DNA from: DATDCY01 sp031406795 [NCBI: Candidatus Rokuibacteriota bacterium]
Lineage (GTDB): Bacteria > JAUVQV01
DNA: 15,995 nt
Assembly: GCA_031406795.1 (NCBI GenBank)
Contig: JANOHV010000009.1
Coordinates: forward strand, 1 to 15,995
Reading direction: 5' to 3'
The notes under the pieces are model-generated. The model ran no database searches. It worked only from the letters and a program-made list of their open reading frames with translations, and was not told where the DNA came from. Positions 1-15,995 of this stretch are shown here, piece by piece. The first letter of the stretch is position 1, and every line of letters begins with the position of its first letter. Both the position numbers and the translations under genes were made by a program.

Positions 1-178
1 CCGCCTGCCCGACCAGCAACTCCCCGCCGGGAGTAAATCCGACGCAGGAGGGGAGCATCGTCGTCTCGCCGGGACCGATGATCCGCACCCGGCCGTCGAC
101 GAACGCCGCGATCTCCGAATTGGTCGTCCCCAGGTCGATGCCGACCACCACGCCAGGTTCTGCCGTCTTCATCTCCAT
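1..178 (-). CDS. Hsp70 (DnaK-family) chaperone, N-terminal fragment
   Basis: ATP-dependent chaperone of the Hsp70/actin-ATPase fold, expected in the cytoplasm. Only about 59 residues lie in the window; the rest continues past the left edge. The visible protein has the Hsp70 phosphate-1 loop, GIDLGTTNSEIAAF, followed by a beta-hairpin region (VDGRVRIIGPGE, then MLPSCVGF), as in the first strands of DnaK. Two in-frame starts are possible, ATG at 178 and ATG at 172. The AAAGGATGGAG stretch just upstream suits 172 best as a ribosome binding site. It is the last visible gene of a leftward operon that also encodes a GrpE-type exchange factor and a J-domain protein, so it very likely works with them. 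That separate setting, and the divergent partners, suggest a specialised Hsp70 paralogue rather than housekeeping DnaK. The substrate-binding domain, which would decide this, is not visible. Confidence 0.88.
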   Translation of the reverse strand, partial: MEMKTAEPGVVVGIDLGTTNSEIAAFVDGRVRIIGPGETTMLPSCVGFTPGGELLVGQA

Positions 179-239
179 CCTTTCAGGTAAAGGTACCGCG
201 AATCTTCACCGTTATTCACGCCAGCTCTTGTGCTTCGTA

Positions 240-262
240 GGGGAGGGGTTGATCCCCTCCCC
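240..262. repeat. GC-rich palindromic mini-repeat (copy A)
   Basis: A perfect 9-bp inverted repeat: left arm GGGGAGGGG at 240-248, loop TTGAT, right arm CCCCTCCCC at 254-262, preceded by GTA and followed by GCCCG. It lies in the 173-nt spacer between the grpE-like and Hsp70 genes, about 60 nt upstream of the Hsp70 start, so a leftward transcript would carry it as a strong hairpin. Its sequence matches three elements between pheS and pheT (9958-10074), which marks it as a dispersed repeat family. It could act as an mRNA-processing or attenuation element, or be a passive mobile palindrome; the sequence does not decide. Confidence 0.75.
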
Positions 263-351
263 GCCCGTTCCCGGTGAATCGTCTTCATCTTGGACGGTGG
301 TCAACCCCGGCCCCTCGAGTCGCCGTGCTGCGAAAGAAGCAAGTCAACCGA

Positions 352-1191
352 TCATTTGTCATGGTCCACCGTAGTGTTCAGCGGCGAGGCCGCAACTTTG
401 ACGCGGACCGGCCGGTAGAGTTCCCCCTGCCACAGATACCCGCGCTGATAGACCTCCAGGACCGTTCCCGTGGCGACGCGGGAGGTCACCTCGCGATCCA
501 CGGCCTCCATCAGGTGCGGGTCGAAGGGCAGGCCCTGGCATTCGATCTCCCGAACCTGATATCCGGCGAGGATCTCCTCGAGATAGTCCAGGCTCAGACG
601 ATACCCTTTTCGCAGGGCCGCGAGGCTTGTTGCGTCCTGCTCCAGCTTTCTCCCGCTTCCGCCGAAGAGACCGGCGAGCCACCCGGCCCGCGGCGGCGCC
701 GCCTGGCCACCCGACCGCAGTGCCTCCAGGCCGCGCATCAGCCGGTCCCGCAGCATAACCAGATGCGCGAGCATCTCCCGGCGCACCCGCTGTTCCACCT
801 CGCGGCGAAGTTCCCGCTCCCGCTCCTGCCGCTCCCCCCGCCCCTCGTCCGCGATGCGGCGGGCCTCGGCGAGGGCCTCACGGTGAAGGCTCAGGATCTG
901 GTCGACGCGATCGCCGAGACCGGCCGTGGCCTCGAGCCGCTCGTGGAGCTGCTTGAAGGCCCGCCCCTGAAGCCTGATCTCCTGGGTCTGGGCAGTCAGG
1001 GCCGACCAGATCGCGAAGAGGTCGTCGCCCTCTGCGACCGTGCCCTCGCTCTCGGCGCCATCTCCTTTTTCCAAATCCGCCCAGACCTCCGCGGCAATCC
1101 CCGTCGGCGGCGCTTCCTCCGCCAGGGCGTTGTTCAGCAGGTCCCGGAAGCGTTCCACCAGGATCTCCCGACGTTCATCAGGCAGCGTCAT
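352..1191 (-). CDS. grpE: GrpE-type nucleotide exchange factor, elongated
   Basis: Predicted nucleotide exchange factor that releases ADP from the Hsp70 encoded next to it. The C-terminal part (about residues 205-268) is a clear GrpE beta-domain: FDPHLMEAVDREVTS, then GTVLEVYQRGYLWQGE and YRPVRVKVA. Before it comes a long charged helical region (about 60-155) typical of the GrpE dimer stalk. At 279 residues it is much longer than the usual 170-200. The extra length is an acidic N-terminal region (1-60) and an insert around 155-190 (GGQAAPPRAGWLAGLFGG) that interrupts the helices. The ATG at 1191 overlaps the stop of the upstream J-domain gene (ATGA), and an AAAGGA ribosome binding site lies just before it, so translation is probably coupled. 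The domain call is secure. That it serves this Hsp70 rather than a housekeeping one is inferred from position. Confidence 0.9.
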   Translation of the reverse strand: MTLPDERREILVERFRDLLNNALAEEAPPTGIAAEVWADLEKGDGAESEGTVAEGDDLFAIWSALTAQTQEIRLQGRAFKQLHERLEATAGLGDRVDQILSLHREALAEARRIADEGRGERQERERELRREVEQRVRREMLAHLVMLRDRLMRGLEALRSGGQAAPPRAGWLAGLFGGSGRKLEQDATSLAALRKGYRLSLDYLEEILAGYQVREIECQGLPFDPHLMEAVDREVTSRVATGTVLEVYQRGYLWQGELYRPVRVKVAASPLNTTVDHDK

Positions 1192-1496
1192 TTTCCTTTC
1201 AGAACCTCCATCCAGAACTGCGGGCCGACGAATCTCCTCTGCGGGATCCGACCGTGGATGAGCAGCGTGAAATCGAGATCCCCGGTGCCCGCGACAAGCT
1301 GATACCGGGCGCGGCGGCGGGGATCGCGCAGGACCGCGTAGGCATCGCGTATCCGTTCGAATTCATCGGCACGATCCGGCGGGTATTCCCTGACCTTCGC
1401 CAGGTAGGCGGCGCGGATCTGCTCTTCCGTCGCCGCGGCTGATACACCAAGGATCTCCCAGGGATCATCGATTGCGCTGTCAACCCGGTTCCTCAT
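1188..1496 (-). CDS. Small J-domain co-chaperone with non-canonical HPD motif (PPD)
   Basis: 102-residue protein with an N-terminal J domain (about residues 10-67): DDPWEILGVSAAATEEQIRAAY, a charged helix, then the loop YPPDR and FERIRDAYAVLRDP, matching helices I-III. J domains stimulate Hsp70 ATPase through an invariant His-Pro-Asp; here the His position is Pro (P39-P40-D41). The C-terminal 35 residues have no recognisable domain. There is no Gly/Phe region, zinc finger or DnaJ C-terminal domain, so it is not a full DnaJ. The ATG at 1496 follows GAGGTGGAAGGA, a good ribosome binding site. It sits 33 nt after the TPR-like gene and overlaps grpE by 4 nt. Whether it still activates Hsp70, or does so by an altered contact, cannot be told from sequence. 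Confidence 0.88.
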   Translation of the reverse strand: MRNRVDSAIDDPWEILGVSAAATEEQIRAAYLAKVREYPPDRADEFERIRDAYAVLRDPRRRARYQLVAGTGDLDFTLLIHGRIPQRRFVGPQFWMEVLKGK

Positions 1497-1529
1497 GTTC
1501 CTTCCACCTCTTTCGCGATCTTGAGCACA

Positions 1530-4148
1530 TTACGAAAAATCGAATAGATTTTTCTGCCGTTCCCGCGCTTCCTTCTTCTTCTCCGCGGCGGCTTTTTTCC
1601 GGTCGGGCTCCGCTCGCGTACGCTCCGCCACTTTCCGGGCGAGCGCATCGAGCAACTCGAGCATCGCGGGATCGTCGGAATCGGCCGCCCGCTTCCGTGC
1701 GGCACCTCCGCGGCAGGTTGCCTGGCGTTCCGCTCGACACTCCGGGCATTCACATTCCGCGGCGAAATCCCTGACTTGTCTGTTTCGGCGGGGTGGCCCG
1801 GGTTGCCGCTGCGTGGGGTGTGTGCGCTGCTGCCGCTCCTTTTCGACGACCGCCTGAACCTGTTCGCTGTTCAGGCTCTTCCCCATCTCCTCGAGCAGAT
1901 CCTGGCCCGCCCACGACAACGTGGACTTCAGCCCGATGCCGTCGTCGATAGACTTCAGGTCCCGGCGCCGCCGCGCGAGCTCCAGAGCCGCTGCGATCGC
2001 GTGGACGCGCCGCTCCTCTTCCCACGGGGGGAGGATGCCCGCCCGCAACAGCAGGAACCGGGGGAGGAAATCCCCGCCGCCGTCGATTCCCGCCACGGTA
2101 GCGGCATAGGAGAGATGCGGACCTTCGCTGCCGACGAGCGCGGTGGCGATGGCCATGTCATACAGAGGTCCGGGCGGGAGGGGACGCGAGTCCCCTCTGT
2201 CAGTGAGTTCCTTGATCAACCTTTTTTCCCACCGCTGCGGGAGCGCAATGCTCAGGCCCAGGCCGGCGCCAAGGGCGTAGACGCGGGCGACGTCCCCTGC
2301 CAGATCGCCTCCTTCCGCTTCGGGCGGCGGCAGGAGAGCCTCACGAACGTCGTCGGGCAGGCCCCCGTTGATCGCCAGAGTCGAGAGGAGTGTCGAGGCC
2401 GCGATGTCGCCGAGCCGCGCCACCACCCCATCCCGGACGGCCGCGGCCTCCGGTTCCCTCCCGAGCAGATGCAGGGCACCCCAGCGCAGGGCTTCCAGGA
2501 AAGCCGGTCGGTCGCCCTCCCGGCACAGCGGCAGCGCCTCGAGCGCGGCGATGTCCGCTTCGATCAGCTTTGGCTTTTTCTGACGCAGGTGCCGGAGGGC
2601 GGCGATGACCAGCAGGCGCAGCTTCGTGCGATGGACTTCAGGATTGAGGGCATCGAGACGCTCGGCCTTCGCCAGCCAGCCCAGGGCTTTCTGGAAGGCG
2701 CCCCGGCCCTGCGTCGCCGAGGCGAGGAAAAGCAGGGGCTGAACATCCTGCGGGAGGGCGCGGTGCCATCTCTCGGCGACCTCTTCGGCCGCGCCGCCGT
2801 CTCCCTGTTTCTTCGCCCAGGCCAACCATTCGCCGAAAGTCTCCCCATGAGGCTCGATGGCGCAGGAGCGCGCGAAGTGGGCCTGGGGGGAAAATTCCGC
2901 CGGGGGCAATGCCCCCGGCCGGAGTTGGTTGTCGGCGAAATCATCTTCGTAGATCGTCCGGGCGTCCTCCAAGTCTGCGGCGGGATAGGACGCGAGAATC
3001 CCGGCCACGTGGAGAAAAAGCATTGCCTCGGCCGAACTGCCCGCGGCGAACCGGCCCTCCTGGAGCGCCAGACGACGATACTCCTCCCAGGCATCGATGA
3101 CGACCGACAGCGTTTCGGGTTCGTGAAACTTTTCGATGGTCGCGGCGAAGAGCCGACAATACTCCGCGTCCTGCCGTGGGGCGCCACCCAGCGCGGCCTG
3201 CATCTTTTTCTCGGGAAAGCCGTGCACGACGGCCCGTATCGAGATGCGGATACGGAGTCGCTGCACGAGATCCGGAGCGGCGCGACGGCAGAGATCGACC
3301 GTGGGGGCGATCTGCTCCAGCGCATCGCGCGCGTGTGCCTGGTGAAAGCTCTGTTCCAGACGCGCCAGCGCCTCGCTGAAACCGGCGCTCCCACCATCGA
3401 TCTGGTCGACGAGACGGGCCGCGCTTTCGGTCAGATCCCGCGCGGGCTTCCCGGAGCAGATCGCCTCCAGGGCAGGCACGAGCCGCGCGGGGATGGTTCC
3501 CGGTTCCACGGCGGCGAGAAAGCGCCGGCAGGCGACGTCGTCCCGACGATAAAACGCGGCGATCGCCCGGACGAGTGTCTTCCACGACGCGAGCGGGCTG
3601 CGGCGGGAGATCTCGGAAAGTTCGATCGCCTCATCTTCCACGGGGCCCTGCGTAACCGCATCAAAAGCGGCGGTGAGGGCGGCGGCCCCCCGGCGCAGGG
3701 GATGGTCGGACGGGAGGGCGGAGCAGCGCGCCAGAGACTGAAGATCGCCGACATCCCTTTTGATCGTCTCTTCGATGGCCGCTTTGCGCTCCGGCGGGAG
3801 GTCGGGATCGAGCAGGGGCCGCACCAGATCGTCCAGCCTGCCCCGGCTCAGAGCGATCTGGCCCCCGATCTGCTGGAGTCGTGGCCGGGAAGCGGGGTAC
3901 TTGTCCCGCACCAGCCCCGCCAGGGCATCGGCCTCCTCCCACATCTGCTTGTTCGCCATCGCCTGAATGCGGGCGAGGTAGGCCTCGATCAGGAGATTCT
4001 CACTTGCGGCCGAGGCCGCGTGCTTGTGGATCTGCTTGGCGAGATCGAGCGCGGACTTGCTTTCGCCACGGCCAATCAGGATGCCGACTCGCTCCGCGTC
4101 ACCCGGATCGGGCGGGAGCGCGCTGTTCTTCATCTGCAGCTTACTCAT
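1530..4148 (-). CDS. Large helical-repeat (TPR-like) protein of chaperone operon, function unknown
   Basis: 872-residue soluble protein with no signal peptide or membrane segment. Most of it looks alpha-helical with repeat character: an N-terminal TPR-like stretch (about 18-110; SALDLAKQIHKHAAS, EEADALAGLVRDKYP) and a clearer pair of TPR-like units at about 450-510 (WHRALPQDVQPLLFLAS, AFQKALGWLAKAERLDALNP). A Pro/Arg-rich linker (775-795) leads to a small Cys cluster, C799-E-C801-P-E-C804 and C812, possibly a metal site. The highly charged tail ends in NLFDFS. I do not recognise the family. It is the first gene of the leftward unit with J-domain, GrpE and Hsp70 genes, so it may be a client adaptor or scaffold for that Hsp70; this is inference. 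The ATG at 4148 has only a weak ribosome binding site; Met6 is an alternative start. A long open frame on the opposite strand is a GC-codon shadow. Confidence 0.82.
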   Translation of the reverse strand: MSKLQMKNSALPPDPGDAERVGILIGRGESKSALDLAKQIHKHAASAASENLLIEAYLARIQAMANKQMWEEADALAGLVRDKYPASRPRLQQIGGQIALSRGRLDDLVRPLLDPDLPPERKAAIEETIKRDVGDLQSLARCSALPSDHPLRRGAAALTAAFDAVTQGPVEDEAIELSEISRRSPLASWKTLVRAIAAFYRRDDVACRRFLAAVEPGTIPARLVPALEAICSGKPARDLTESAARLVDQIDGGSAGFSEALARLEQSFHQAHARDALEQIAPTVDLCRRAAPDLVQRLRIRISIRAVVHGFPEKKMQAALGGAPRQDAEYCRLFAATIEKFHEPETLSVVIDAWEEYRRLALQEGRFAAGSSAEAMLFLHVAGILASYPAADLEDARTIYEDDFADNQLRPGALPPAEFSPQAHFARSCAIEPHGETFGEWLAWAKKQGDGGAAEEVAERWHRALPQDVQPLLFLASATQGRGAFQKALGWLAKAERLDALNPEVHRTKLRLLVIAALRHLRQKKPKLIEADIAALEALPLCREGDRPAFLEALRWGALHLLGREPEAAAVRDGVVARLGDIAASTLLSTLAINGGLPDDVREALLPPPEAEGGDLAGDVARVYALGAGLGLSIALPQRWEKRLIKELTDRGDSRPLPPGPLYDMAIATALVGSEGPHLSYAATVAGIDGGGDFLPRFLLLRAGILPPWEEERRVHAIAAALELARRRRDLKSIDDGIGLKSTLSWAGQDLLEEMGKSLNSEQVQAVVEKERQQRTHPTQRQPGPPRRNRQVRDFAAECECPECRAERQATCRGGAARKRAADSDDPAMLELLDALARKVAERTRAEPDRKKAAAEKKKEARERQKNLFDFS
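2178..2197. repeat. Perfect palindrome embedded in the TPR-like gene (site 1)
   Basis: Inverted repeat with arms GAGGGGAC (2178-2185) and GTCCCCTC (2190-2197) and a GCGA loop. It lies inside the 872-residue gene and codes for part of the peptide RGDSRPLPPGP (about residues 651-661). Read on the coding strand, its right flank (TCCCCTCCCGCCCG) resembles the flank of the intergenic palindrome at 240-262. This suggests a diverged copy carried in frame in a loop. Confidence 0.6.
2899..2919. repeat. Perfect palindrome embedded in the TPR-like gene (site 2)
   Basis: Nine-bp perfect inverted repeat: GCCGGGGGC at 2899-2907, loop AAT, GCCCCCGGC at 2911-2919. It is inside the TPR-like coding region and encodes part of RPGALPPAEF (about residues 410-419), a proline-rich spot between helical segments. 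The hairpin would be very stable in mRNA of either strand. It differs in sequence from the 240-262 family, so it may be a second repeat type or a chance result of GC-rich codons. Confidence 0.5.
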
Positions 4149-4278: not shown

Positions 4279-5508
4279 CTACCGCAATTGCGGCAGGGAT
4301 TGAGCGATCTGCCTGATGCTGACAGGGGAGACCCCGGCTTCGGTGGCGAAGTCCTTCCATCGGGCGACGGCCGCCTGTACCTGATCGATGATCCCGGCGA
4401 TCTCGCGCTTGGTCACGCCGGCTTGTTCAGCCAGTCGAAGCATCTGCGATCTCCCCGGGTTCTTGCCCTCGCCGGCCAACGACATGGTGTGCTCGCCGCC
4501 GGGGCCGGGGGTGTACAACAGATCGTACGAGGGGGAAAGAGCCCAGTCGCCCGTGGTGTCGTCCAAGAGAAATGCGAAGTTCTTCACATGGTCGTCGCGA
4601 TTGTGGGCCAGTACGTTGAAGACCATGCAGCGGCAGGCTCGCAGCACGTCCTGATGGTTTCGCGTCAGCAGTGACGTGGCCTTGAGCAAGTCGGCATAGT
4701 CGGCCGACGGGATGCGGAAGTTTGATTGAATAAGGTTGCCGAACGTGTGGACGTGGTAGCGCCGCTTGCCGTCGCGGTCGAACCGCTTGCTGCCGAAGAA
4801 CCGGTCGCCTTCTGAAGTCTCGAACAGGCGCGTCGGCGGCAGGTCGATGCCGGCAGCGCCGGCCATCAGGGAATAGGCGTACTCGATCGCCCCGGCGTCG
4901 CGGCTTTCGCTCCTGGCCGCGAACTTCACGATCCAGTGCTCGATGCCAGCGGGAAGGTCGTCTTCACCGGAGGTGACGTCGCCGCTGCCGGAGTTGAAGC
5001 CCACCAGTACCTTGGGCCGCGCACCACCGGGCGAACCGCCGGCCCGCAGCAGTTGCGGCAATACGTCAACGGCAACGCCGGCCAGTATGTCCTGGGACTG
5101 CCGAGCCAGATCATGCAGGTCGAACACGCCGGCATCGACGTTATCGCGATCGGTCGGCGGGTGGTACGTCAGTGCGCCCATCGTCCTCGTGCCGAGCCAG
5201 GAGAGCCGGTCCAGCGGGCTTACTTCGGCCAGGTTCCGCCCGCGAGATCGGAAGTGCCGGTCCATCAGCAGCAGGCCCCAACCGTCGGGCAGAGAGTCAT
5301 CGAACAGGCCCGGCAGTGGCCCGAAATCGCGGTCGGTATGCTCGAACAGCCCGGGCCCGAACGGCAGGCGGAAGGGCGACAGGTTCAGTCCCGCGGCGAG
5401 GAAGCCGGGCGCATATTCAAAGTACACCCGGCCGTGATCCTCGGCCAGCGTGCCAACGGGCAACGAGTCGCCGGGGCGGCGTGTGAAGCGGACCTCAAGT
5501 TTCCTCAT
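4279..5508 (-). CDS. hipA: HipA-type toxin kinase
   Basis: Serine/threonine protein kinase toxin of type II HipBA systems; E. coli HipA phosphorylates glutamyl-tRNA synthetase and causes growth arrest. The 409-residue protein has the HipA N-subdomain 1 (about 1-110, with LPGLFDDSLPDGWG) and the kinase core. Visible kinase features are the Gly-rich loop S159-PGGARPK, aligned with the segment holding autophosphorylated Ser150 of E. coli HipA; K195 in HWIVKF (ATP lysine); the catalytic loop AHNRDDHVKN (D305, N310); and SPSYDL (D329, Mg-binding). All key residues are intact, so it should be active. The start ATG overlaps the hipB stop (ATGA), with GAGG about 6 nt upstream. Length matches the family (about 400-440). 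The in vivo target of this homologue cannot be inferred; family members differ in target. Confidence 0.93.
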   Translation of the reverse strand: MRKLEVRFTRRPGDSLPVGTLAEDHGRVYFEYAPGFLAAGLNLSPFRLPFGPGLFEHTDRDFGPLPGLFDDSLPDGWGLLLMDRHFRSRGRNLAEVSPLDRLSWLGTRTMGALTYHPPTDRDNVDAGVFDLHDLARQSQDILAGVAVDVLPQLLRAGGSPGGARPKVLVGFNSGSGDVTSGEDDLPAGIEHWIVKFAARSESRDAGAIEYAYSLMAGAAGIDLPPTRLFETSEGDRFFGSKRFDRDGKRRYHVHTFGNLIQSNFRIPSADYADLLKATSLLTRNHQDVLRACRCMVFNVLAHNRDDHVKNFAFLLDDTTGDWALSPSYDLLYTPGPGGEHTMSLAGEGKNPGRSQMLRLAEQAGVTKREIAGIIDQVQAAVARWKDFATEAGVSPVSIRQIAQSLPQLR

Positions 5509-5816
5509 ATCCGGCCTCGCTTGGGGAGAGGCCTGGCGGCGCGTTGCTCAAGCTCCGCGATGCTCCGTGCCGACGGCGGCTCGAACAGCTTGTTGAATTC
5601 CTCGAGCCGGGACAGGGCGTGGGCAATCTTGAGCACCAATTCCAGCGAGCCCATCCCGGTGGTCTCGAACCGCTTGAGCGATGCAGCTGTCACTCCGGCC
5701 CGGAGCGCCAGCGTGCTCCGGGTCCAGCCCTTGAGCAATCGCAGGGCCTTGGAACGGTCGGCCAGCGAGCGGCCCATCTCGGCAGGACCAACCAGTGAAA
5801 GTGTCGCCGCATTCAC
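5505..5816 (-). CDS. hipB: HipB-type antitoxin, XRE-family HTH
   Basis: 103-residue DNA-binding antitoxin that should neutralise HipA and repress the hipBA operon. An XRE/Cro helix-turn-helix spans about residues 16-72: MGRSLADRSKALRLLKGW, TLALRAGVTAASLKRFE (recognition helix), then TGMGSLELVLKIAHAL. The charged C-terminal tail (about 80-103) is probably the part that contacts HipA or is disordered. The start is GTG at 5816. No Shine-Dalgarno precedes it, but a consensus-like -10 box ends 6 nt upstream, so the mRNA probably begins at this GTG. A downstream ATG (Met14, 5777) is a possible alternative and would still give the whole HTH. The gene overlaps hipA by 4 nt. Confidence 0.9.
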   Translation of the reverse strand: MNAATLSLVGPAEMGRSLADRSKALRLLKGWTRSTLALRAGVTAASLKRFETTGMGSLELVLKIAHALSRLEEFNKLFEPPSARSIAELEQRAARPLPKRGRI

Positions 5817-8909: not shown

Positions 8910-9935
8910 ATGGAAGAGAAGATCCGTTCGCTCGGTGAGCGCGCGCACGCCGAACTCGGCGCCGCCGTCGAACCCGGGGCGCTCGAGTCCTGGCGTGTCG
9001 AGCATCTCGGCCGCAAGGGCGCGCTGGCGGCGCTGATGACGCAGCTGGGTGCCGTCCCCAAGGAGGACCGGCCGCGTCTCGGCGCACTGGCAAACGAGAT
9101 CAAGAACGGGCTGCAGGCCGCGTTCGACCGGCGACTCGCGGCCCTCGAGGCGGAAAGCCGCCGGGCCGCCGAGGCCGCCGAGCGCGTCGACGTGACGCTG
9201 CCGGGCGCTCCGCCGAACCCCGGCCGCCTGCACCTGACGACTCAGACACTGCGGCGCATCTGCCGCATCTTCCACGGCATGGGCTTCGAGATCTTCGAGA
9301 GCCCCGAGGTCGAGAGCGACCAGTACAACTTCGAGCTGCTCAACATGCCCCAGCACCACCCGGCGCGCGACATGTGGGACACCTTTTACGTCAACGAGAC
9401 GACGCTGCTGCGCACGCACACCTCGCCCGGGCAGATCCACGCGATGAAGGGCCGCGCCCCGGAGCCGCTCCGGGTCGTGCTGCCGGGCCGGGTCTTCCGC
9501 TACGAGGCGGTCTCCGCGCGCTCCGAGTTCATGTTCTACCAGGTCGAGGGGATCGCGGTCGGGCGCAACGTGACGATGGCGCAGCTCAAGGGGCTGTTCG
9601 AGAGCTTCGCGAGCCAGATGTACGGCGGCAAGCGGCGCCTGCGCCTGCGCGGCAGCTACTTCCCGTTCACCGAGCCGAGCGTCGAGATCGACATGGACTG
9701 CATCCTCTGCGGCGGCAGGGGCTGCCGGATCTGCAAGGGCGCCGGCTGGCTCGAGATCGGCGGCGCCGGCATGATCCACCCGACGGTGCTCGAAAACGGC
9801 GGGTACGACCCGGCGATCTTCTCCGGCTTCGCGTTCGGCATGGGTCCCGAGCGCATCGCGATGCAGGTGCACGGGATCGACGACATCCGCTATTTCTACT
9901 CGAACGACCTGCGTTTCCTGGCGCAATTCGGATAA
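8910..9935 (+). CDS. pheS: Phenylalanyl-tRNA synthetase alpha subunit
   Basis: Catalytic alpha subunit of the alpha2-beta2 enzyme that charges tRNA-Phe. The 341-residue length is typical. An N-terminal coiled-coil tRNA-binding region (about 1-90) is followed by the class II core: HTSPGQIHAM (170-179), motif 2 in GRVFRYEAVSARSEFMFYQ (193-211), and motif 3 in GFAFGMGPERIAM (306-318). Between motifs 2 and 3 is a four-cysteine insert, C264-x2-C267-x4-C272-x2-C275, before GWLEIGGAGM, probably metal-binding and seen in a subset of bacterial PheS. The start ATG follows AGGGAGG. A longer upstream frame is only the shadow of the PAP2 gene. pheT follows after a 152-nt spacer with repeats. Confidence 0.96.
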   Translation: MEEKIRSLGERAHAELGAAVEPGALESWRVEHLGRKGALAALMTQLGAVPKEDRPRLGALANEIKNGLQAAFDRRLAALEAESRRAAEAAERVDVTLPGAPPNPGRLHLTTQTLRRICRIFHGMGFEIFESPEVESDQYNFELLNMPQHHPARDMWDTFYVNETTLLRTHTSPGQIHAMKGRAPEPLRVVLPGRVFRYEAVSARSEFMFYQVEGIAVGRNVTMAQLKGLFESFASQMYGGKRRLRLRGSYFPFTEPSVEIDMDCILCGGRGCRICKGAGWLEIGGAGMIHPTVLENGGYDPAIFSGFAFGMGPERIAMQVHGIDDIRYFYSNDLRFLAQFG

Positions 9936-9957
9936 CGGGAGATGAGCGGGCGCCGGC

Positions 9958-10074
9958 GGGAGGGGATCAACCCCTCCCCTAGAAACCTGGTTGACGATCG
10001 CGCAGGGGCGGGGTACATCCCCGCCCGGCCGAAGATGAATTGGAATGGCGTAGGGGCGGGGTTGACCCCCGCCC
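9958..10074. repeat. Three GC palindromes with 48-bp period in the pheS-pheT spacer
   Basis: Three inverted repeats fill the spacer. Copy B: GGGAGGGG 9958-9965, loop ATCAA, CCCCTCCC 9971-9978. Copy C: GGGCGGGG 10006-10013, loop TACAT, CCCCGCCC 10019-10026. Copy D: GGGCGGGG 10054-10061, loop TTGAC, CCCCGCCC 10067-10074. Loop centres are at 9968, 10016 and 10064, exactly 48 bp apart. The intervening 27-nt stretches are unrelated to each other. Copy B is in inverted orientation and matches the palindrome at 240-262. Copy D ends 2 nt before the GAGGAG ribosome binding site of pheT, so its hairpin could affect pheT translation. Confidence 0.85.
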
Positions 10075-10087
10075 ATGAGGAGCCCCG

Positions 10088-12532
10088 ATGCGCGTACCGC
10101 TGAAGTGGCTGTCCGAGTTCGTGACGATCGACGTCCCGCTCGACGACCTGCTGGAGCGCCTGCCGACCGCCGGCATCGAAGTCGGCGAGATCGAGCGCGT
10201 CGGGGCCGACTGGGACCGCGAGAAGGTCCTGGTCGGCGAGGTCACCGCGGTGCGGCAGCACCCGAACGCCGACCGGCTGACGCTGGCGACGGTCGCCTAC
10301 GGCGGGGGACGATCGATCGAAGTGGTGACCGGCGCCCCGAACATCACGATCGGCATGGCCGGCGTCAAGGTGCCGCTCGCGCTCTCGGGTGCCAGGCTCG
10401 TCGACGCCTATGCGCCCGCGGGCGGCTTTATCGTGCTCAAACCCTCGAAGATCCGCGGTGTGCGTTCCGAGGGGATGGTCTGCTCGGAGAAGGAACTGGG
10501 TATCAGCGCCGAGCACGGCGGCATCCTGATCCTTCCCGAGGACGCCGAGCCCGGCACGCCGCTCGTCGACTACCTGGGCGACACCGTATTGCACGTCGAG
10601 CTCACCCCGAACCTCTCGCATTGCCTCTCGCTTGCCGGGATCGCGCGCGAAGTGGCGGCGATGGGTTGCGGTACGCTGGTGGATCGCGCCGAATCGGTCG
10701 TCGAGGGCGACGGCGTCGCGGCCGAACAGGTCGCGGTGCGCATCGAGGCCCCGGAGCTCTGCGGCCGCTACTGCGCGGCGGTCGTCGCCGGGGTGACGAT
10801 CGGTACCGCGCCGTTCGCGATGCGCCACCGGTTGCGGCTGGCCGGCATCCGGCCGATCAACAACGTCGTCGACGCGACCAACTACGTCATGTGGGAGACC
10901 GGGCAGCCGCTGCACGCGTTCGATCTCGATACGCTGCGCGGCGAGGCCGGATCGGTCGGGCCGGTGATCGTCGTGCGCCCGTCCCGCGAGGGCGAGGTCA
11001 TGAAGACACTCGATAACGTCGAGCGCCCGCTCGCGACGGGCACGCTGCTGATCTGCGACGGCGCCGGACCGGTCGCGCTCGCGGGCGTCATGGGCGGCCT
11101 GCACAGCGAGGTCACCGACCAGACGCGGCGCGTGCTGATCGAAGCCGCGCAGTTCGACCGCACTAGCATCCGGGTGACCGCGATCGGCCAGCGCCTGCCG
11201 AGCGAGGCGTCGCTGCGCTTCGGGCGCGGCGTGCCGGCCGCCGGCAGCCTGGGTGCGGCCCGCCGCGCCGCCGAGCTGATGCGCCGGCACGCCGGCGGCT
11301 CGATCGCCCGCGGGGTGGTCGACGTTTACCCGCGCCCGCAGCCGGCGACGCCGGTGCGGCTCCCGGCAGGGGAGATCGAGCGCATTCTCGGCTTTGTCGT
11401 CCCCGCCGCGGAAGTCGGCCGTATCCTCCGCTCCCTCGGCTGCACGGTGGTCGAGGAGGGAACCGACTTCGTGGTCACGCCGCCGCCGACGCGCCTGGAT
11501 CTCACGATCGCCGCCGACCTGGTCGAGGAGGTCGCGCGCATCACCGGCTACCACCGCATCCCGAGCGCGCCGATGTCCGGCGAGTTCGCGCCGCCGCGCC
11601 CGAACCCGGAGATGGACGCCGAGGACCGCGCGCGCGACGCGCTCGTCGCCTGCGGCCTGACCGAGGTCATCACCTACTCGCTGACCGACCCGGCCTGGTG
11701 CCTGCGCCTCGGCATCGAAGCGGACGTCAGCGGCTTCGTCTGCCTCGCCAACCCGATGACCGCAGATCGCACCCACCTGCGCCGCCACATCCTGCCCGGC
11801 CTGCTCGAGACGCTGCGCTACAACCTGCGCTACGTCGAGCGCGTCGCGATCTTCGAGCTGGCGCGCGTCTACCTCCCCTCGGCGGTGCAGCTCCCCGAAG
11901 AGCCGCGGCGGCTGGCGCTGCTGCTCAGCGGCGCATCAATGCTGCCGTGGTGGGGCAACCCCGCGCCGCCCCCCTATGACTTCTTCCACGCCAAGGGGAT
12001 CCTCGAGACGCTCGCCGAACGGCTCAATGTCGGGCCGCTGTCGTTCGCGCCCTACGAGGGTTCGCCGTACCAGAGCGGCCGCGCCGCCGTCGTGTCGCGC
12101 GGCAGCGAGACGCTCGGCACCTTCGGTGAACTCGACCCCTCGCTGCGCCACGTCTTCGACCTGCCCGAGCGTCGCGTGGTGCTCGGCGAGTTCGACGCCG
12201 CTGCGCTGCTGGCCGGCGCGGGCCTCGGCGCCTACCGCACCCTCTCGCGCTACCCGGTGCTGACGCAGGACCTGGCGATCGTCTGCCCCGAGGAACTGCA
12301 GGCGGCGCTGGTCGAGGAGACGGTCCGCGCGGCCGCCGGGGATCTGCTCGCCTCGGTGCGGCTCTTCGATGTCTACCGCGGCGACCCACTGCCCGCGGGG
12401 ACCAGAAGCCTGGCCTTCACGCTGACCTTCCAGGCCGCGGATCGCACGCTGGCCGAGGAGGATGTCCAGCCGGCGCGCGCGAGGATCATCGCGGCGTTGA
12501 AGGACAAGCACGGGGTCGAGCTGCGCGCCTGA
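10088..12532 (+). CDS. pheT: Phenylalanyl-tRNA synthetase beta subunit
   Basis: Beta subunit of phenylalanyl-tRNA synthetase, for tRNA recognition and editing of mischarged tyrosine. The 814-residue protein shows the expected domain order: N-terminal segment (MRVPLKWLSEFV), EMAP-like tRNA-binding domain (about 40-155; VLVGEVTAVRQHPNADRL, VTGAPNI), B3/B4 editing domain (about 205-385; RPINNVVDATNYVMWETGQP), B5 domain (about 400-480; DLVEEVARITGYHRIP), catalytic-like core (about 490-700), and C-terminal anticodon-binding FDX-ACB domain (about 720-814; LSRYPVLTQDLAIVC). All look intact. The ATG is 5 nt after GAGGAG. It should be cotranscribed with pheS across the palindrome-filled spacer. Confidence 0.96.
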   Translation: MRVPLKWLSEFVTIDVPLDDLLERLPTAGIEVGEIERVGADWDREKVLVGEVTAVRQHPNADRLTLATVAYGGGRSIEVVTGAPNITIGMAGVKVPLALSGARLVDAYAPAGGFIVLKPSKIRGVRSEGMVCSEKELGISAEHGGILILPEDAEPGTPLVDYLGDTVLHVELTPNLSHCLSLAGIAREVAAMGCGTLVDRAESVVEGDGVAAEQVAVRIEAPELCGRYCAAVVAGVTIGTAPFAMRHRLRLAGIRPINNVVDATNYVMWETGQPLHAFDLDTLRGEAGSVGPVIVVRPSREGEVMKTLDNVERPLATGTLLICDGAGPVALAGVMGGLHSEVTDQTRRVLIEAAQFDRTSIRVTAIGQRLPSEASLRFGRGVPAAGSLGAARRAAELMRRHAGGSIARGVVDVYPRPQPATPVRLPAGEIERILGFVVPAAEVGRILRSLGCTVVEEGTDFVVTPPPTRLDLTIAADLVEEVARITGYHRIPSAPMSGEFAPPRPNPEMDAEDRARDALVACGLTEVITYSLTDPAWCLRLGIEADVSGFVCLANPMTADRTHLRRHILPGLLETLRYNLRYVERVAIFELARVYLPSAVQLPEEPRRLALLLSGASMLPWWGNPAPPPYDFFHAKGILETLAERLNVGPLSFAPYEGSPYQSGRAAVVSRGSETLGTFGELDPSLRHVFDLPERRVVLGEFDAAALLAGAGLGAYRTLSRYPVLTQDLAIVCPEELQAALVEETVRAAAGDLLASVRLFDVYRGDPLPAGTRSLAFTLTFQAADRTLAEEDVQPARARIIAALKDKHGVELRA

Positions 12533-12646: not shown

Positions 12647-12753
12647 TCATGCCATCCAATGAGAGGAGCAGGTCAGGGGATGCACCTTTCCCTTGCTCGA
12701 GGGACGGATCGAAGGAATAGCGCGATCATCCCCAGCCCGAGGTGATAGAACGC

Positions 12754-13335
12754 ATGGTACCAGCGGCGCTGAAGCGGGACGCGAAATACACTTATACAGA
12801 TTACATCCAGTGGTCCGAGGACGAGCGCTGGGAGTTGATACACGGTGTCGCGTATAACATGACACCGGCGCCCTCGCGGACCCACCAGAAAATCTCGAAG
12901 AGACTGCTGGTTGAGTTTGAAATTCATCTTCGGGGCAAGCGGTGCGAAGTGTACGACGCCCCTTTCGACGTCCGCCTCACGGCGCCCGGCGAATCCGACG
13001 AAACGACGAGCACGGTTGTCCAGCCGGACCTGGTGGTGGTCTGCGATCTGTCAAAGTTGGACGACCGGGGCTGCAAGGGCGCCCCGGATCTCGTGATCGA
13101 GATCCTCTCCCCCGAGTCAGTGGCGAGGGATCAGAAGGAGAAATTCCTTCTCTATGAACAGGCGGGGGTGCTGGAATACTGGCTGGTCCATCCAACAGAT
13201 CGTATCGTCACGGTCTTTCATCGCGGTGCCGACGGTGCCTACGGCCGCCCGGCGGTTTACACGCCCGACGAGCGGATCCGGGTCGGCGTCCTTCCGGAGC
13301 TGGAGATCGATCTCGCCGCCGTGTTCGGGGAGTAG
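12754..13335 (+). CDS. Uma2-family (DUF820) putative endonuclease
   Basis: 193-residue protein of the Uma2 family, a restriction-endonuclease-like PD-(D/E)XK fold; biological role mostly unknown. Recognisable parts in order: YTDYIQWSEDERWELIHG with E27, H44 in the next helix, VVQPDLVVVCD with D92, PDLVIEILSPES with E116, and KFLLYEQAGVLEYWLVHP near 134-151. These match the family core and look intact. I chose ATG 12754 over GTG 12742 because a perfect GAGGTGA (12739-12745) lies 8 nt upstream of the ATG, and the GTG is part of that site. Uma2 genes are often multicopy and mobile in accessory regions, which fits the drop in GC and the nearby toxin-antitoxin pair. Confidence 0.88.
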   Translation: MVPAALKRDAKYTYTDYIQWSEDERWELIHGVAYNMTPAPSRTHQKISKRLLVEFEIHLRGKRCEVYDAPFDVRLTAPGESDETTSTVVQPDLVVVCDLSKLDDRGCKGAPDLVIEILSPESVARDQKEKFLLYEQAGVLEYWLVHPTDRIVTVFHRGADGAYGRPAVYTPDERIRVGVLPELEIDLAAVFGE

Positions 13336-14033: not shown

Positions 14034-15995
14034 ATGCAAATCGTGGCACTGCAACGGTCGATTCAAGCCTTGGTGCGCCCGGCGTGTCTCGTCGCAGCGG
14101 TCTTCTTCGCCCTCTGCCTTGACCCCGTTGTCCTGCGCGCGGCCGGTCCTGTCGTCACGGTGACCTCCATGAATCCCGACTCGGGAGTCTGGATGACCCC
14201 CTGCTGCGGCATGAACGCCTGCGCCCAGTTCGTCGAGTCGACCCCATTCACGATCAGCTGCCCGGGTGGGACCCCCGTCCGGCTCGAGGCCCCCGCCAGC
14301 GTCGGCGAGACGCCCTTCACCGAGTGGCGGCGTCCGGGCTCTTTGCCTTACACCATCTCGCCGACGTTCATCGTCCTGCCGGACACCGACGTCACGCTCA
14401 CCGTAGTCTACGGGAATCCCGTCGAACCCCTCCCCGACTTTGCCGTCACCGGCATCACCCTCACGCCCGCGTCGCCCATCACCGGGCTCACCTTCAGCGC
14501 TCAGGTCACGGTGACGAACCAGGGCGCGGCCGTCAATACGTACGACGGCTGGCTCGACATCTGGACCGACCGGGCCGCCGCCGCCGGGTGCAGGATCTAC
14601 GGCACCACCGGCAGAGGGTTCGGCAGCCTCGCCCCCGGGGCGGGCCGGGTGCTGACGTTCACCGGCCTGACCGCCGGACCGGCCGGGGCCGCGACCTTCC
14701 GCGCCTTCGCCGAGGTGGACTGCCTGATCGAGGAAGCCGACGAGACGAACAACGAGGCGACCCTCGCCTACACGGTGCGCCCGCGCAAGACCCTGTCAGT
14801 CTCCTCGGTGAACCCTGCGAACGCCGCGATCCAGGTCTCCCCAAACGACCTCGTGGGTCAGGCGACCGGGACCGCCCCTTTCAGCCGCTCCTACGACCCC
14901 GGCGCGGTTGTGACCCTCACCGCGCCCGCCGACGTGGGGGGCTACGTCTTCCAGAAGTGGCGCCGGGACGGGCTCGATTTCGCGACGACGCGCTCCGTCG
15001 AGGTGACCATGGAAGCCGACCACAACCTCGTCGCCGTCTACGCGCGCCCGCCGTCACCGGATTTCTGGGTCAGCAGCATCACCGTCATGCCCACGCAACC
15101 CACGGCAGGGTATGCCTTCAGCGCCTCGATTACCGTCCAGAACAGGGGAAACGCCGGCGGCAACGGGGGGAGCCTTGCCGTCTGGGCCAACAAGCTCTTC
15201 AACTCCACGTGCACCCGGTACGAGTCGGGGATGTGTTTGGAGTACACCCCCTCGTGCAACTGGTACGAGGCGGATCAGGGGCTCCAGGTCGGCACGCTCG
15301 CCGCTGGCGAAAGCAGGACGTTCGTCTTCAGCGGCCTCGGACCGCTCGCCCAGGGCAGCGCTTACTACCTCCGCGCGTACGTCGATGCCGAATGCGAGAC
15401 TTCCGAAGGCGTGAACGGCGACCTGGAGGGCGACAACCAGAGCACCCGCAACTACCTCGTGATCACCGGTACGGTTCATACCTTGTATGTCGACACCCTC
15501 GACGGCCGGGACACGCAGATCGCCCACAGCATGGACATCTCCGGGAAGACGATCGGCACGACGCAGTTCACGCGAAACTTCCGGGACCGCTCGACGGTGA
15601 CTCTCACCGCGCCCCCGACGACTCCCGACGGTGGCGTCTTCCAGAAGTGGCTCGGGCTCGAACCCGTGGTCCCAACCACCCCCGAGGTCACGTTCACGAT
15701 GGACACCGACAAGTGGGTTGAGGCGGTCTACGTCGGCCCTGGGGAGCCCGACTTCGCCGTGACCGGTCTCGCCCTCGAACCGCCCGGCCCGCCGGCGGGG
15801 GGGACCTTCTCTGCGACGGTGACCATCACCAACGTCGGCACCGGCCGCGGGGTCCCCGGCACGCTCGTCCTGTTCCCGGACCGGAGCGTCCCGGCAAACT
15901 GTTGGGCAACGACGATCTACGGTCCGATGCACATCTACGATCTCGCCGCCGGAGCGTCCCTGACCTTTACGATCCCGGACATTCCCGCTGGTGCG
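14034..15995 (+). CDS. Large exported protein with alternating InlB-like and CARDB modules (3' truncated)
   Basis: Open for 654 codons to the right edge. An N-terminal signal peptide is seen (LVAAVFFALCL core, probable cleavage near LRA-AG at 36-38), so the protein is exported. It then alternates two module types: InlB B-repeat-like domains at about 39-127, 253-338 and 479-568 (pattern NP...VTLTAP...FQKW...VAVY), and CARDB domains at about 135-250, 343-475 and 573 onward (each opening PDF, with FSA..TV.N.G and then LAAG or LAPG). CARDB modules are adhesion-type domains common in secreted proteins of environmental bacteria. The second CARDB module carries extra Cys (CTRYESGMCLEYTPSC). The ATG at 14034 has a poor ribosome binding site but gives a proper signal sequence. 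C-terminal anchoring or a catalytic domain may lie outside the window. Long frames in the other reading frames here are shadows. Confidence 0.85.
   Translation, partial: MQIVALQRSIQALVRPACLVAAVFFALCLDPVVLRAAGPVVTVTSMNPDSGVWMTPCCGMNACAQFVESTPFTISCPGGTPVRLEAPASVGETPFTEWRRPGSLPYTISPTFIVLPDTDVTLTVVYGNPVEPLPDFAVTGITLTPASPITGLTFSAQVTVTNQGAAVNTYDGWLDIWTDRAAAAGCRIYGTTGRGFGSLAPGAGRVLTFTGLTAGPAGAATFRAFAEVDCLIEEADETNNEATLAYTVRPRKTLSVSSVNPANAAIQVSPNDLVGQATGTAPFSRSYDPGAVVTLTAPADVGGYVFQKWRRDGLDFATTRSVEVTMEADHNLVAVYARPPSPDFWVSSITVMPTQPTAGYAFSASITVQNRGNAGGNGGSLAVWANKLFNSTCTRYESGMCLEYTPSCNWYEADQGLQVGTLAAGESRTFVFSGLGPLAQGSAYYLRAYVDAECETSEGVNGDLEGDNQSTRNYLVITGTVHTLYVDTLDGRDTQIAHSMDISGKTIGTTQFTRNFRDRSTVTLTAPPTTPDGGVFQKWLGLEPVVPTTPEVTFTMDTDKWVEAVYVGPGEPDFAVTGLALEPPGPPAGGTFSATVTITNVGTGRGVPGTLVLFPDRSVPANCWATTIYGPMHIYDLAAGASLTFTIPDIPAGA

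What the first reader, a model, noticed from the sequence alone, without database searches (positions are those of the whole stretch)
1..4148. Self-contained Hsp70-GrpE-J operon led by a large TPR-like protein of unknown family
Four leftward genes in tight order encode an 872-residue helical-repeat protein, a bare J-domain protein, an elongated GrpE and an Hsp70. The components differ from a housekeeping dnaK locus: the J protein lacks all DnaJ domains, and GrpE has an N-terminal extension and an insert. The conserved-looking linkage suggests a dedicated chaperone machine with the large protein as client adaptor or scaffold. The linkage is seen; the function is inferred.
Basis: partly seen in the sequence, partly recalled or inferred. 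Interest (0 to 1): 0.62.

Follow-up and report, generated by a model that had tools for sequence, protein, structure and literature searches.

The report
Dedicated bacterial Hsp70 chaperone operon
A four-gene bacterial operon appears to make its own small Hsp70 protein-folding machine: a large helical-repeat protein, a stripped-down J protein that has lost a normally essential histidine, a long GrpE and a divergent Hsp70; the same set recurs in other bacteria beside their ordinary DnaK.

Summary
In detail: an 872-residue protein, a 102-residue J protein and a 279-residue GrpE lie head-to-tail, followed by an Hsp70 of which only 59 residues are in the window. The linkage is conserved. Homologues of the 872-residue protein occur in 19 of 349 genomes of an Acidobacteriota class; 13 carry all four genes in this order, 3 are cut by contig ends, 3 are remnants. 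A parallel cassette with an ordinary TPR protein in that place occurs in 23 of 158 Chloroflexia-class genomes. In six other genomes J and TPR are one protein, followed by GrpE and Hsp70. A DnaK above the curated cut-off is present in 57 of 58 genomes searched. The cassette Hsp70 keeps DnaK Arg167 and the GrpE loop that E. coli HscA and HscC lack. Best reading: a self-contained Hsp70 machine whose TPR-like protein and bare J act as one split co-chaperone. Clients are unknown; the window's own genome is not held. New variant of a known kind.

The parts
1530..4148 (-). 872-aa helical-repeat (TPR-like) protein, first gene of the cassette
   Evidence: ORF; homologues 31-41% identical in Acidobacteriota-class genomes; no Pfam hit in 13 of 13 members
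3795..4115 (-). residues 12-118 of the 872-aa protein, predicted as tandem helical hairpins of TPR type
   Evidence: AlphaFold2 single sequence, mean pLDDT 85.6, pTM 0.76; structural neighbours mostly TPR, Z up to 12.4, best Foldseek E 0.2
1737..1754 (-). CxCxxC motif (residues 799-804) near the C-terminus of the 872-aa protein
   Evidence: alignment A4: present in window, L269, L301, L309 (4 of 13)
1188..1496 (-). 102-aa bare J-domain protein
   Evidence: Pfam DnaJ E=9.2e-13, residues 11-65; prefers the Chloroflexia cassette J profile over a canonical J profile by 8.8 bits
1374..1382 (-). PPD tripeptide in the place of the HPD motif (J residues 39-41)
   Evidence: alignment to a profile of canonical J domains; codon positions
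352..1191 (-). 279-aa GrpE with N-terminal extension and an insert
   Evidence: Pfam GrpE E=2.5e-18, residues 135-267; long N-terminal part and insert lie in the same place as in Chloroflexia cassette GrpEs (alignment)
1..178 (-). N-terminal 59 residues of the cassette Hsp70; gene runs off the window
   Evidence: Pfam HSP70 E=1.7e-8; 72% identical to L301 cassette Hsp70 over 50 aa; shares a one-residue deletion with most split-cassette Hsp70s

Best explanation
This is a dedicated Hsp70 machine, separate from housekeeping DnaK-DnaJ-GrpE. The large TPR-like solenoid and the bare J protein together do the job of one co-chaperone: the solenoid recognises the client or tethers the machine, and the J protein passes it on by engaging the operon's own Hsp70. 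The operon's own GrpE resets the Hsp70. The J domain has swapped the HPD histidine for proline but keeps the proline and an acidic residue, and the Hsp70 keeps Arg167, so the pair is probably matched to itself and poorly matched to housekeeping DnaK. Shown: gene content and order, their conservation, the HPD change, the retained Arg167 and GrpE loop in relatives, coexistence with canonical DnaK in relatives, and J-TPR fusions elsewhere. Inferred: that the large protein binds J and clients, that the J is active on its Hsp70, and that the set is orthogonal to DnaK.
For: Linkage: 13 of 19 genomes with a homologue of the large protein have all four genes in order; 3 cut by contig ends, 3 remnants. 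Parallel cassette in 23 of 158 Chloroflexia-class genomes: TPR protein upstream of J in 21 of 21 readable, GrpE after J in 21 of 21 readable, Hsp70 after GrpE in 19 of 20 readable. Fused J-TPR, then GrpE, then Hsp70 in 6 loci: L139, L141, L142, L271, L272, L274. DnaK over the curated cut-off in 28 of 28 and 29 of 30 genomes; cassette Hsp70s score well below it. HPD histidine absent in 53 of 53 J proteins of this type, present in 75 of 75 distinct other long J domains (circular in part, see Tried and rejected). Arg167 kept in 40 of 40 cassette Hsp70s; GrpE loop ungapped in the 14 cassette sequences printed, gapped in E. coli HscA and HscC. Many of the genes overlap by a few bases. No neighbour family recurs across cassette types, bar one promiscuous-looking family in 9 of 47 loci and an ABC-transporter-like one in 4.
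Against: No experiment and no predicted complex. The window-type large protein has no demonstrable sequence homology to the TPR proteins of the Chloroflexia or fused cassettes (hhalign probability 5%), so the fusion argument is one of position. The full-length fold is unresolved (pLDDT 46). GrpE-Hsp70 spacing in the window is about 173 bp, so co-transcription of Hsp70 is not certain. The window's own canonical dnaK could not be tested. One genome (G685, draft) showed only the cassette Hsp70. Two J-TPR proteins of this type (L140, L273, both in G125) have no GrpE or Hsp70 beside them; G125 has a 584-aa Hsp70 on another contig. L264 and L189 lack an adjacent Hsp70. The set is sporadic: absent from 330 of 349 and 135 of 158 genomes of the two classes searched, as far as those searches see.
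Confidence: 0.68

Rival explanations
1. The large protein is the machine's client rather than its adaptor: the Hsp70, J and GrpE exist to fold or remodel this one big solenoid, as HscA-HscB serve IscU.
For: One constant neighbour per Hsp70 set; HscA-HscB beside IscU is a known example of a dedicated Hsp70 (locus seen; function recalled).
Against: In six loci a TPR solenoid is fused to the J domain, which fits a targeting part better than a substrate; solenoids without detectable kinship occupy the same place in different clades.
Confidence: 0.17
2. The J protein is a degenerate, inactive J-like regulator (as Pam16 is to Pam18): it docks the large protein or blocks the Hsp70, and a housekeeping DnaJ supplies the ATPase stimulation.
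For: The HPD histidine is missing in 53 of 53; loss of this histidine inactivates E. coli DnaJ (recalled, not from a call).
Against: The proline and an acidic residue stay in every one of the 53, and the partner Arg167 is kept in 40 of 40 cassette Hsp70s. A dead J would be expected to lose the acidic residue too.
Confidence: 0.2
3. It is an ordinary dnaK heat-shock locus that has merely diverged.
For: All three core parts of a DnaK system are present.
Against: 57 of 58 genomes searched carry an Hsp70 above the DnaK cut-off of 822.55 bits; cassette Hsp70s score about 438-459 (complete window-type genes), 511-576 (bare-J TPR types of Chloroflexia and Acidobacteriota), 629 (G158) or 611-659 (fused type). 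No CIRCE element in the window at up to 3 mismatches.
Confidence: 0.04
4. The set belongs functionally with the hipBA toxin-antitoxin pair just upstream.
For: hipBA lies on the same strand, 130 bp upstream.
Against: No HipA or HipB match (E 1e-3) among ORFs of 80 aa or more in the loci in hand, the cassette neighbourhoods included and three plasmid loci left out.
Confidence: 0.02

Closest known systems
DnaK-DnaJ-GrpE housekeeping system
   Same: Hsp70, J protein and GrpE; the GrpE loop and Arg167 of DnaK are kept in cassette relatives
   Different: J has no room for G/F, zinc or C-terminal domains and no HPD histidine; Hsp70 scores far below the DnaK cut-off in relatives; large solenoid encoded in the same operon; coexists with a canonical DnaK in relatives
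E. coli HscC with DjlB and DjlC
   Same: specialised Hsp70 with its own J proteins and Sel1-repeat genes nearby (DjlB/DjlC-HscC pairing from passages of PMC8215388)
   Different: HscC lacks the GrpE loop and is thought not to use GrpE (PMC8215388 passages; gap also); no grpE in the 12 kb shown and its J genes are on the opposite strand
E. coli HscA-HscB
   Same: Hsp70-J pair in the operon of its client system (client recalled)
   Different: no GrpE gene in the stretch shown, GrpE loop gapped
TPR-J co-chaperones: DNAJC7, DNAJC3/P58IPK; cyanobacterial Sll1384
   Same: TPR solenoid teamed with a J domain for client recognition (PMC13254874 and PMC9948308, passages read)
   Different: these keep HPD (Sll1384: passage read; human ones recalled) and are single polypeptides; here J and solenoid are separate genes with their own GrpE and Hsp70
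Myxococcus xanthus MXAN_6672-6671 (grpE2-dnaK2)
   Same: second grpE next to a second dnaK, as a bicistronic operon (PMC11019930, passages read)
   Different: that Hsp70 is a true DnaK able to replace E. coli DnaK, and no J gene adjoins it (same passages)

Membership tests
DnaK (TIGR02350 equivalog) | whole-protein score at or above 822.55 bits | tested here: not met
   For relatives; the window gene is truncated. Window-type cassette Hsp70s score about 438-459 bits where complete, Chloroflexia ones 530-576
HscA | GrpE loop deleted, no GrpE in the operon | tested here: not met
   loop ungapped in the four window-type relatives printed; grpE in the operon. The window's own Hsp70 stub does not reach that region
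HscC | GrpE loop deleted | tested here: not met
   for relatives; HscC falls on the same side of the tree as the split cassettes but on a very long branch, so kinship is unsettled
Hsp70 superfamily | Pfam HSP70 nucleotide-binding domain start | tested here: met
   PF00012 E=1.7e-8, residues 11-59 of the stub
J-domain proteins | J domain by Pfam | tested here: met
   PF00226 E=9.2e-13
J-domain proteins | HPD tripeptide | tested here: not met
   PPD in the window, xP[DE] in 53 of 53 of this type
GrpE | Pfam GrpE above cut-off | tested here: met
   PF01025 66.8 bits against 25.8
GrpE | nucleotide exchange on the cognate Hsp70 | not testable with these tools
   needs biochemistry
TPR proteins (872-aa protein) | Pfam TPR match | tested here: not met
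   0 of 13 members at E 0.01
TPR proteins (872-aa protein) | TPR fold | tested here: inconclusive
   residues 12-118 resemble TPR domains (Z up to 12.4, best Foldseek E 0.2), but the tool warns that Z under about 13 can be common for helical repeats; full length pLDDT 46
Known anti-phage systems (PADLOC) | match to a PADLOC model | tested here: not met
   0 families for four proteins: the three complete window proteins and the L301 Hsp70

The most novel reading that the evidence does not exclude
A further class of bacterial Hsp70 machine, besides DnaK, HscA and HscC: a GrpE-dependent Hsp70 run by a histidine-less J domain (xP[DE] instead of HPD), with targeting supplied by a large solenoid that is a separate gene in some phyla and fused to J in others. 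If the J works, the long-held view that the HPD histidine is indispensable needs qualifying, and the pair would be a natural Hsp70 system insulated from DnaK.
Probability: 0.5. Interest if true: 0.78.

Novelty: new variant of a known kind. Interest (0 to 1): 0.62.

Why it matters
It shows a conserved, self-contained Hsp70 set in bacteria outside the usual models that carries a natural replacement of the HPD histidine, together with the cognate Hsp70. That makes two open questions directly testable: how J-Hsp70 pairs become specific, and whether HPD is strictly required. The split and fused forms of J and TPR in different genomes also give a natural experiment on how J proteins acquire client-recognition parts.

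Tried and rejected
Genome-collection scan with the 872-aa protein and viral scans with GrpE and with the family alignment found no relatives; whole-genome searches with the 872-aa protein in 20 and 2 genomes found none. Plasmid searches: the large protein had no match; J matched 394 records, and of three contexts fetched two showed annotated J genes without a listed GrpE or Hsp70 (one followed by cbpM; the plasmid gene tables are incomplete) and one had no annotation. The window GrpE matched 78 of 116 genomes; none of the 20 neighbourhoods annotated showed the four-gene set. Phylum of Entotheonella (G002): 5 genomes, J hits only at ordinary DnaJ strength; the one neighbourhood read has HPD (L275). 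G001:C152 and G021:C309 looked promising but are a GrpE-end/Hsp70 pair above the DnaK cut-off and a GrpE beside a 344-aa ORF that looks like HrcA (my reading, not scanned). Profile comparison of the window-type large protein with the Chloroflexia TPR protein: not significant. Full-length AlphaFold2 model too poor to search. CIRCE and Rfam scans of the window empty. PADLOC empty. Considered and rejected: ordinary dnaK locus; link to hipBA.

Circularity and dropped rows. The canonical J profile was built from 49 rows (45 distinct) picked because they hold HPD. One search counted 91 other long J rows, which include the same gene met twice in overlapping loci; one search recounts 76 distinct, of which one (L234) is the fused J of L274 again, leaving 75 of 75 with HPD, 30 of them not picked for it. 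The 53 include three J-TPR proteins without GrpE/Hsp70 neighbours. Most of the 53 were found with J queries of this type, which favours the motif; 13 (L301-L309, L311-L313, L316) were found through the large protein instead, and all 13 lack the histidine. Three short other J rows were set apart (two HPD; one is the G222 J again). The Pfam TPR count (20 of 20) leaves out L189, whose TPR gene is in two frames. L304, L310 and L312 were left out of alignment A4 (over-long ORF, cut, 2087-aa ORF). The Hsp70 tree used 50 of 57 collected rows (11 of 18 Chloroflexia ones), quick method. Of the 58 genomes searched for DnaK, G001 and G021 have no cassette that I found, G1059, G880 and G245 hold remnants, and G747 and G125 J-TPR proteins only. 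The organism of the window is unsettled: among 52 loci found, PheS is nearest (69%) to a 'Rokuibacteriota' MAG, then Entotheonella and Chloroflexota, whereas the cassette is closest to the Acidobacteriota-class genomes.
Full report
What is in the window. On the minus strand, in order of transcription, lie an 872-aa ORF (1530-4148), a 102-aa J protein (1188-1496), a 279-aa GrpE (352-1191) and the first 59 residues of an Hsp70 (1-178) that runs off the window. Pfam recognises J (E=9e-13), GrpE (E=2.5e-18, residues 135-267 only) and the Hsp70 stub (E=1.7e-8), but nothing in the 872-aa protein. J and GrpE overlap by 4 bp and the gap between the large gene and J is 33 bp; that between GrpE and Hsp70 is about 173 bp (read). 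No whole genome is held for the window.

Direct homologues keep the set. A J-profile search of 297 genomes of the phylum of G016 (titled Acidobacteria in locus L043) led to G827, whose locus L269 has a 929-aa homologue of the large protein (39% identical in the pairwise alignment), then J, GrpE and Hsp70 in the same order. A search of 349 genomes of G827's class with the pair alignment found homologues of the large protein in 19, G827 itself included. I fetched the neighbourhood in all 19 (L269, L301-L318): 13 have all four genes in the window's order (in L304 and L307 the Hsp70 is broken into two frames); L308, L310 and L314 are cut by contig ends; L315, L317 and L318 hold only degenerate or partial pieces. 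This search used the large protein and not J or Hsp70, so the linkage was not built into it. The remaining 330 genomes gave no match, so the set is sporadic.

A parallel cassette. In the class of G222 (which holds Roseiflexus, Herpetosiphon and Thermomicrobiales genomes, so Chloroflexia) 23 of 158 genomes have a J protein of this type (E at most 2.3e-21, open frames 76-169 aa, with a step to ordinary DnaJ at 7e-20). All 23 neighbourhoods were fetched (L136, L176-L195, L199, L200). A 743-935-aa TPR protein lies upstream of J in 21 of 21 where the contig reaches it (in L189 it is split in two frames), GrpE follows J in 21 of 21 readable, and Hsp70 follows GrpE in 19 of 20 readable (absent beside it in L189). 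Here Pfam sees TPR in 20 of 20 members scanned. Five further Acidobacteriota-phylum genomes and G158 carry similar TPR-type sets; L263 and L265 have the order GrpE-Hsp70-TPR-J, and L264 lacks an adjacent Hsp70. In six genomes J and TPR are one 422-439-aa protein followed by GrpE and a 583-584-aa Hsp70 (L139, L141, L142, L271, L272, L274). Such a fusion suggests that J and the solenoid work together. Three further J-TPR proteins were not seen with these neighbours: L140 and L273, both in G125, and L267 at a contig start. In the mixed set called relatives of G001, 9 of 386 genomes hold a J of this type (G222, G150, G286, G033, G125, G319, G181, G158, G165).

A second Hsp70, not the housekeeping one. 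With the DnaK model TIGR02350, 28 of 28 and 29 of 30 genomes have an Hsp70 above the 822.55-bit cut-off; the exception is the draft G685. Seven of these 58 genomes lack a cassette or hold only remnants or J-TPR proteins (see Tried and rejected). Cassette Hsp70s score about 438-459 (complete window-type genes), 511-576 (bare-J TPR types of Chloroflexia and Acidobacteriota), 629 (G158) or 611-659 (fused type). In a quick tree of 50 Hsp70s the window-type relatives form one group (support 100), the Chloroflexia ones another (99), the fused ones another (100), and a branch of support 100 parts DnaK, HscA and the fused types from all split cassettes in the tree; the other TPR-type ones do not form one group, and E. 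coli HscC falls with the split cassettes on a very long branch, so its place is unsure. The window stub is 72% identical to the L301 cassette Hsp70 over 50 residues. It shares a one-residue deletion ahead of a PS motif with most split cassettes: the stretch is 23 residues in the window and 24 in 14 of 14 canonical, in E. coli DnaK, HscA and HscC and in 6 of 6 fused; window-type relatives have 23 in 5, 22 in 5 and unread in 1 of 11; Chloroflexia ones 23 in 16, unread or misread in 2 of 18; other TPR types 23 in 4, 24 in 1 of 5.

The J domain. Aligned to a profile of canonical J domains, the window has PPD where E. coli DnaJ has HPD. All 53 J proteins of this type read here lack the histidine: PPD 11, PPE 35, DPE 3, SPE 3, NPE 1. 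Other long J proteins in the same collection of loci: 76 distinct, of which one is the fused J of L274 met again, leaving 75 of 75 with HPD; 45 of these had been picked for HPD when the profile was made, so the unbiased part is 30 of 30. Likewise most of the 53 were found with J queries of this type; the 13 found through the large protein instead all lack the histidine too. The proline and an acidic residue are always kept. The Hsp70 side keeps Arg167 in 40 of 40 cassette sequences (11 window-type, 18 Chloroflexia, 5 other TPR type, 6 fused), and Asn170 and Asp393 in the 34 split ones; the fused type has Asp170 and His393 in 6 of 6. The contact role of these DnaK residues, and the loss of function of E. 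coli DnaJ when the histidine is changed, are recalled knowledge.

GrpE. The window GrpE shares with Chloroflexia cassette GrpEs a long N-terminal part and an insert in the same place (my reading of the alignment). The Hsp70 loop tied to GrpE use is ungapped in the 14 cassette sequences printed and gapped in E. coli HscA and HscC; the review PMC8215388 (passages read) says that HscA and HscC lack it and probably do not use GrpE. So the relatives' Hsp70s are not HscA or HscC.

The large protein. Thirteen members align over most of their length (31-41% identity to the window) and none matches Pfam. The only solved-structure profile hit at E up to 1 is a designed TPR (E=0.027), and the best weak NCBIfam hit is the TPR protein MamA (E=0.0018). 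The full-length single-sequence model is helical throughout but of low confidence (pLDDT 46); residues 12-118 alone fold confidently into helical hairpins (pLDDT 85.6). Their structural neighbours are mostly TPR domains (Z up to 12.4), but no Foldseek match is below E=0.001 and the tool warns that Z under about 13 can be common for helical repeats. Profile comparison with the Chloroflexia TPR protein is not significant. I call it TPR-like and treat equivalence with the other solenoids as positional.

How it probably works. The solenoid binds a client or a site; the small J protein, bound to it, hands the client to the cassette Hsp70 and triggers ATP hydrolysis through its xP[DE] loop and Arg167; the cassette GrpE resets the cycle. 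Only the anatomy is shown. That the solenoid is adaptor rather than client, and that the J is active, are inferences. Beside the cassettes (47 loci, genes of 120 aa or more) one gene family recurs in 9 loci, with several copies in some (it looks like sensor or regulator proteins, not scanned); the next largest families reach 3 or 4 loci. The window's upstream hipBA has no match in the loci in hand. So the set looks self-contained and its client is not given away by its neighbours.

What is known. A survey reports that multiple dnaK genes are commonest in Chloroflexi and Acidobacteria and describes a grpE-dnaK2 operon in Myxococcus (PMC11019930, passages); its text has no TPR term, and the J genes of Myxococcus do not adjoin its dnaKs. 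TPR-J proteins are known from eukaryotes and cyanobacteria (PMC13254874 and PMC9948308, passages). Eight searches of the open-licence library (one search listed 12 of 26) showed no title or abstract start that describes this cassette or its histidine-less J; only passages of four listed papers were read, and a subscription review of bacterial J proteins was not held. I therefore rate it a new variant of a known kind.

Noticed in passing
4279-5816 (-): hipB-hipA toxin-antitoxin-like pair directly upstream of the cassette on the same strand; no match in the other loci in hand.
   Followed up: yes
8910-12532 (+): pheS-pheT whose PheS is 69% identical to a 'Rokuibacteriota' MAG and otherwise nearest to Entotheonella and Chloroflexota, while the chaperone cassette is nearest to Acidobacteriota-class genomes; possible horizontal transfer of one of them.
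   Followed up: partly
1542-1556 (-): C-terminal tail of the large protein: basic stretch then QKNLF; five relatives end in QGDLF, QRSLF or QDSLF, reminiscent of the sliding-clamp-binding motif (motif recalled). Other relatives lack it.
   Followed up: no
1737-1754 (-): CxCxxC motif in the large protein, in 4 of 13 rows aligned; possible metal site.
   Followed up: no
L139, L141, L142, L271, L272, L274: Fused J-TPR cassettes pair with Hsp70s that have Asp170 and His393 (DnaK numbering) in 6 of 6, a possible compensating change at the J-Hsp70 interface.
   Followed up: partly
L137 (3747-6974), L138 (5812-9024): Proteins of 1075 and 1070 aa matched by the window J query in their C-terminal half, with no Hsp70 or GrpE hit in the locus; L137 is weakly similar to the cassette TPR family (13 bits).
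   Followed up: no
L312 2905-9165: Homologue of the large protein inside a 2087-aa ORF with no Pfam match.
   Followed up: partly
L315, L317, L318: Apparent remnants of the cassette (broken or partial large protein; L318 also a GrpE-like fragment), suggesting that the set can be lost.
   Followed up: no
G181:C25, G319:C14, G033:C1:2287413: Hsp70-like matches in open frames of about 1160-1207 aa in genomes with fused cassettes.
   Followed up: no
14034-15995 (+): Large protein with CARDB and InlB-like repeats, open at the window end; probably cell-surface.
   Followed up: partly
12742-13335 (+): Uma2-family putative nuclease.
   Followed up: no
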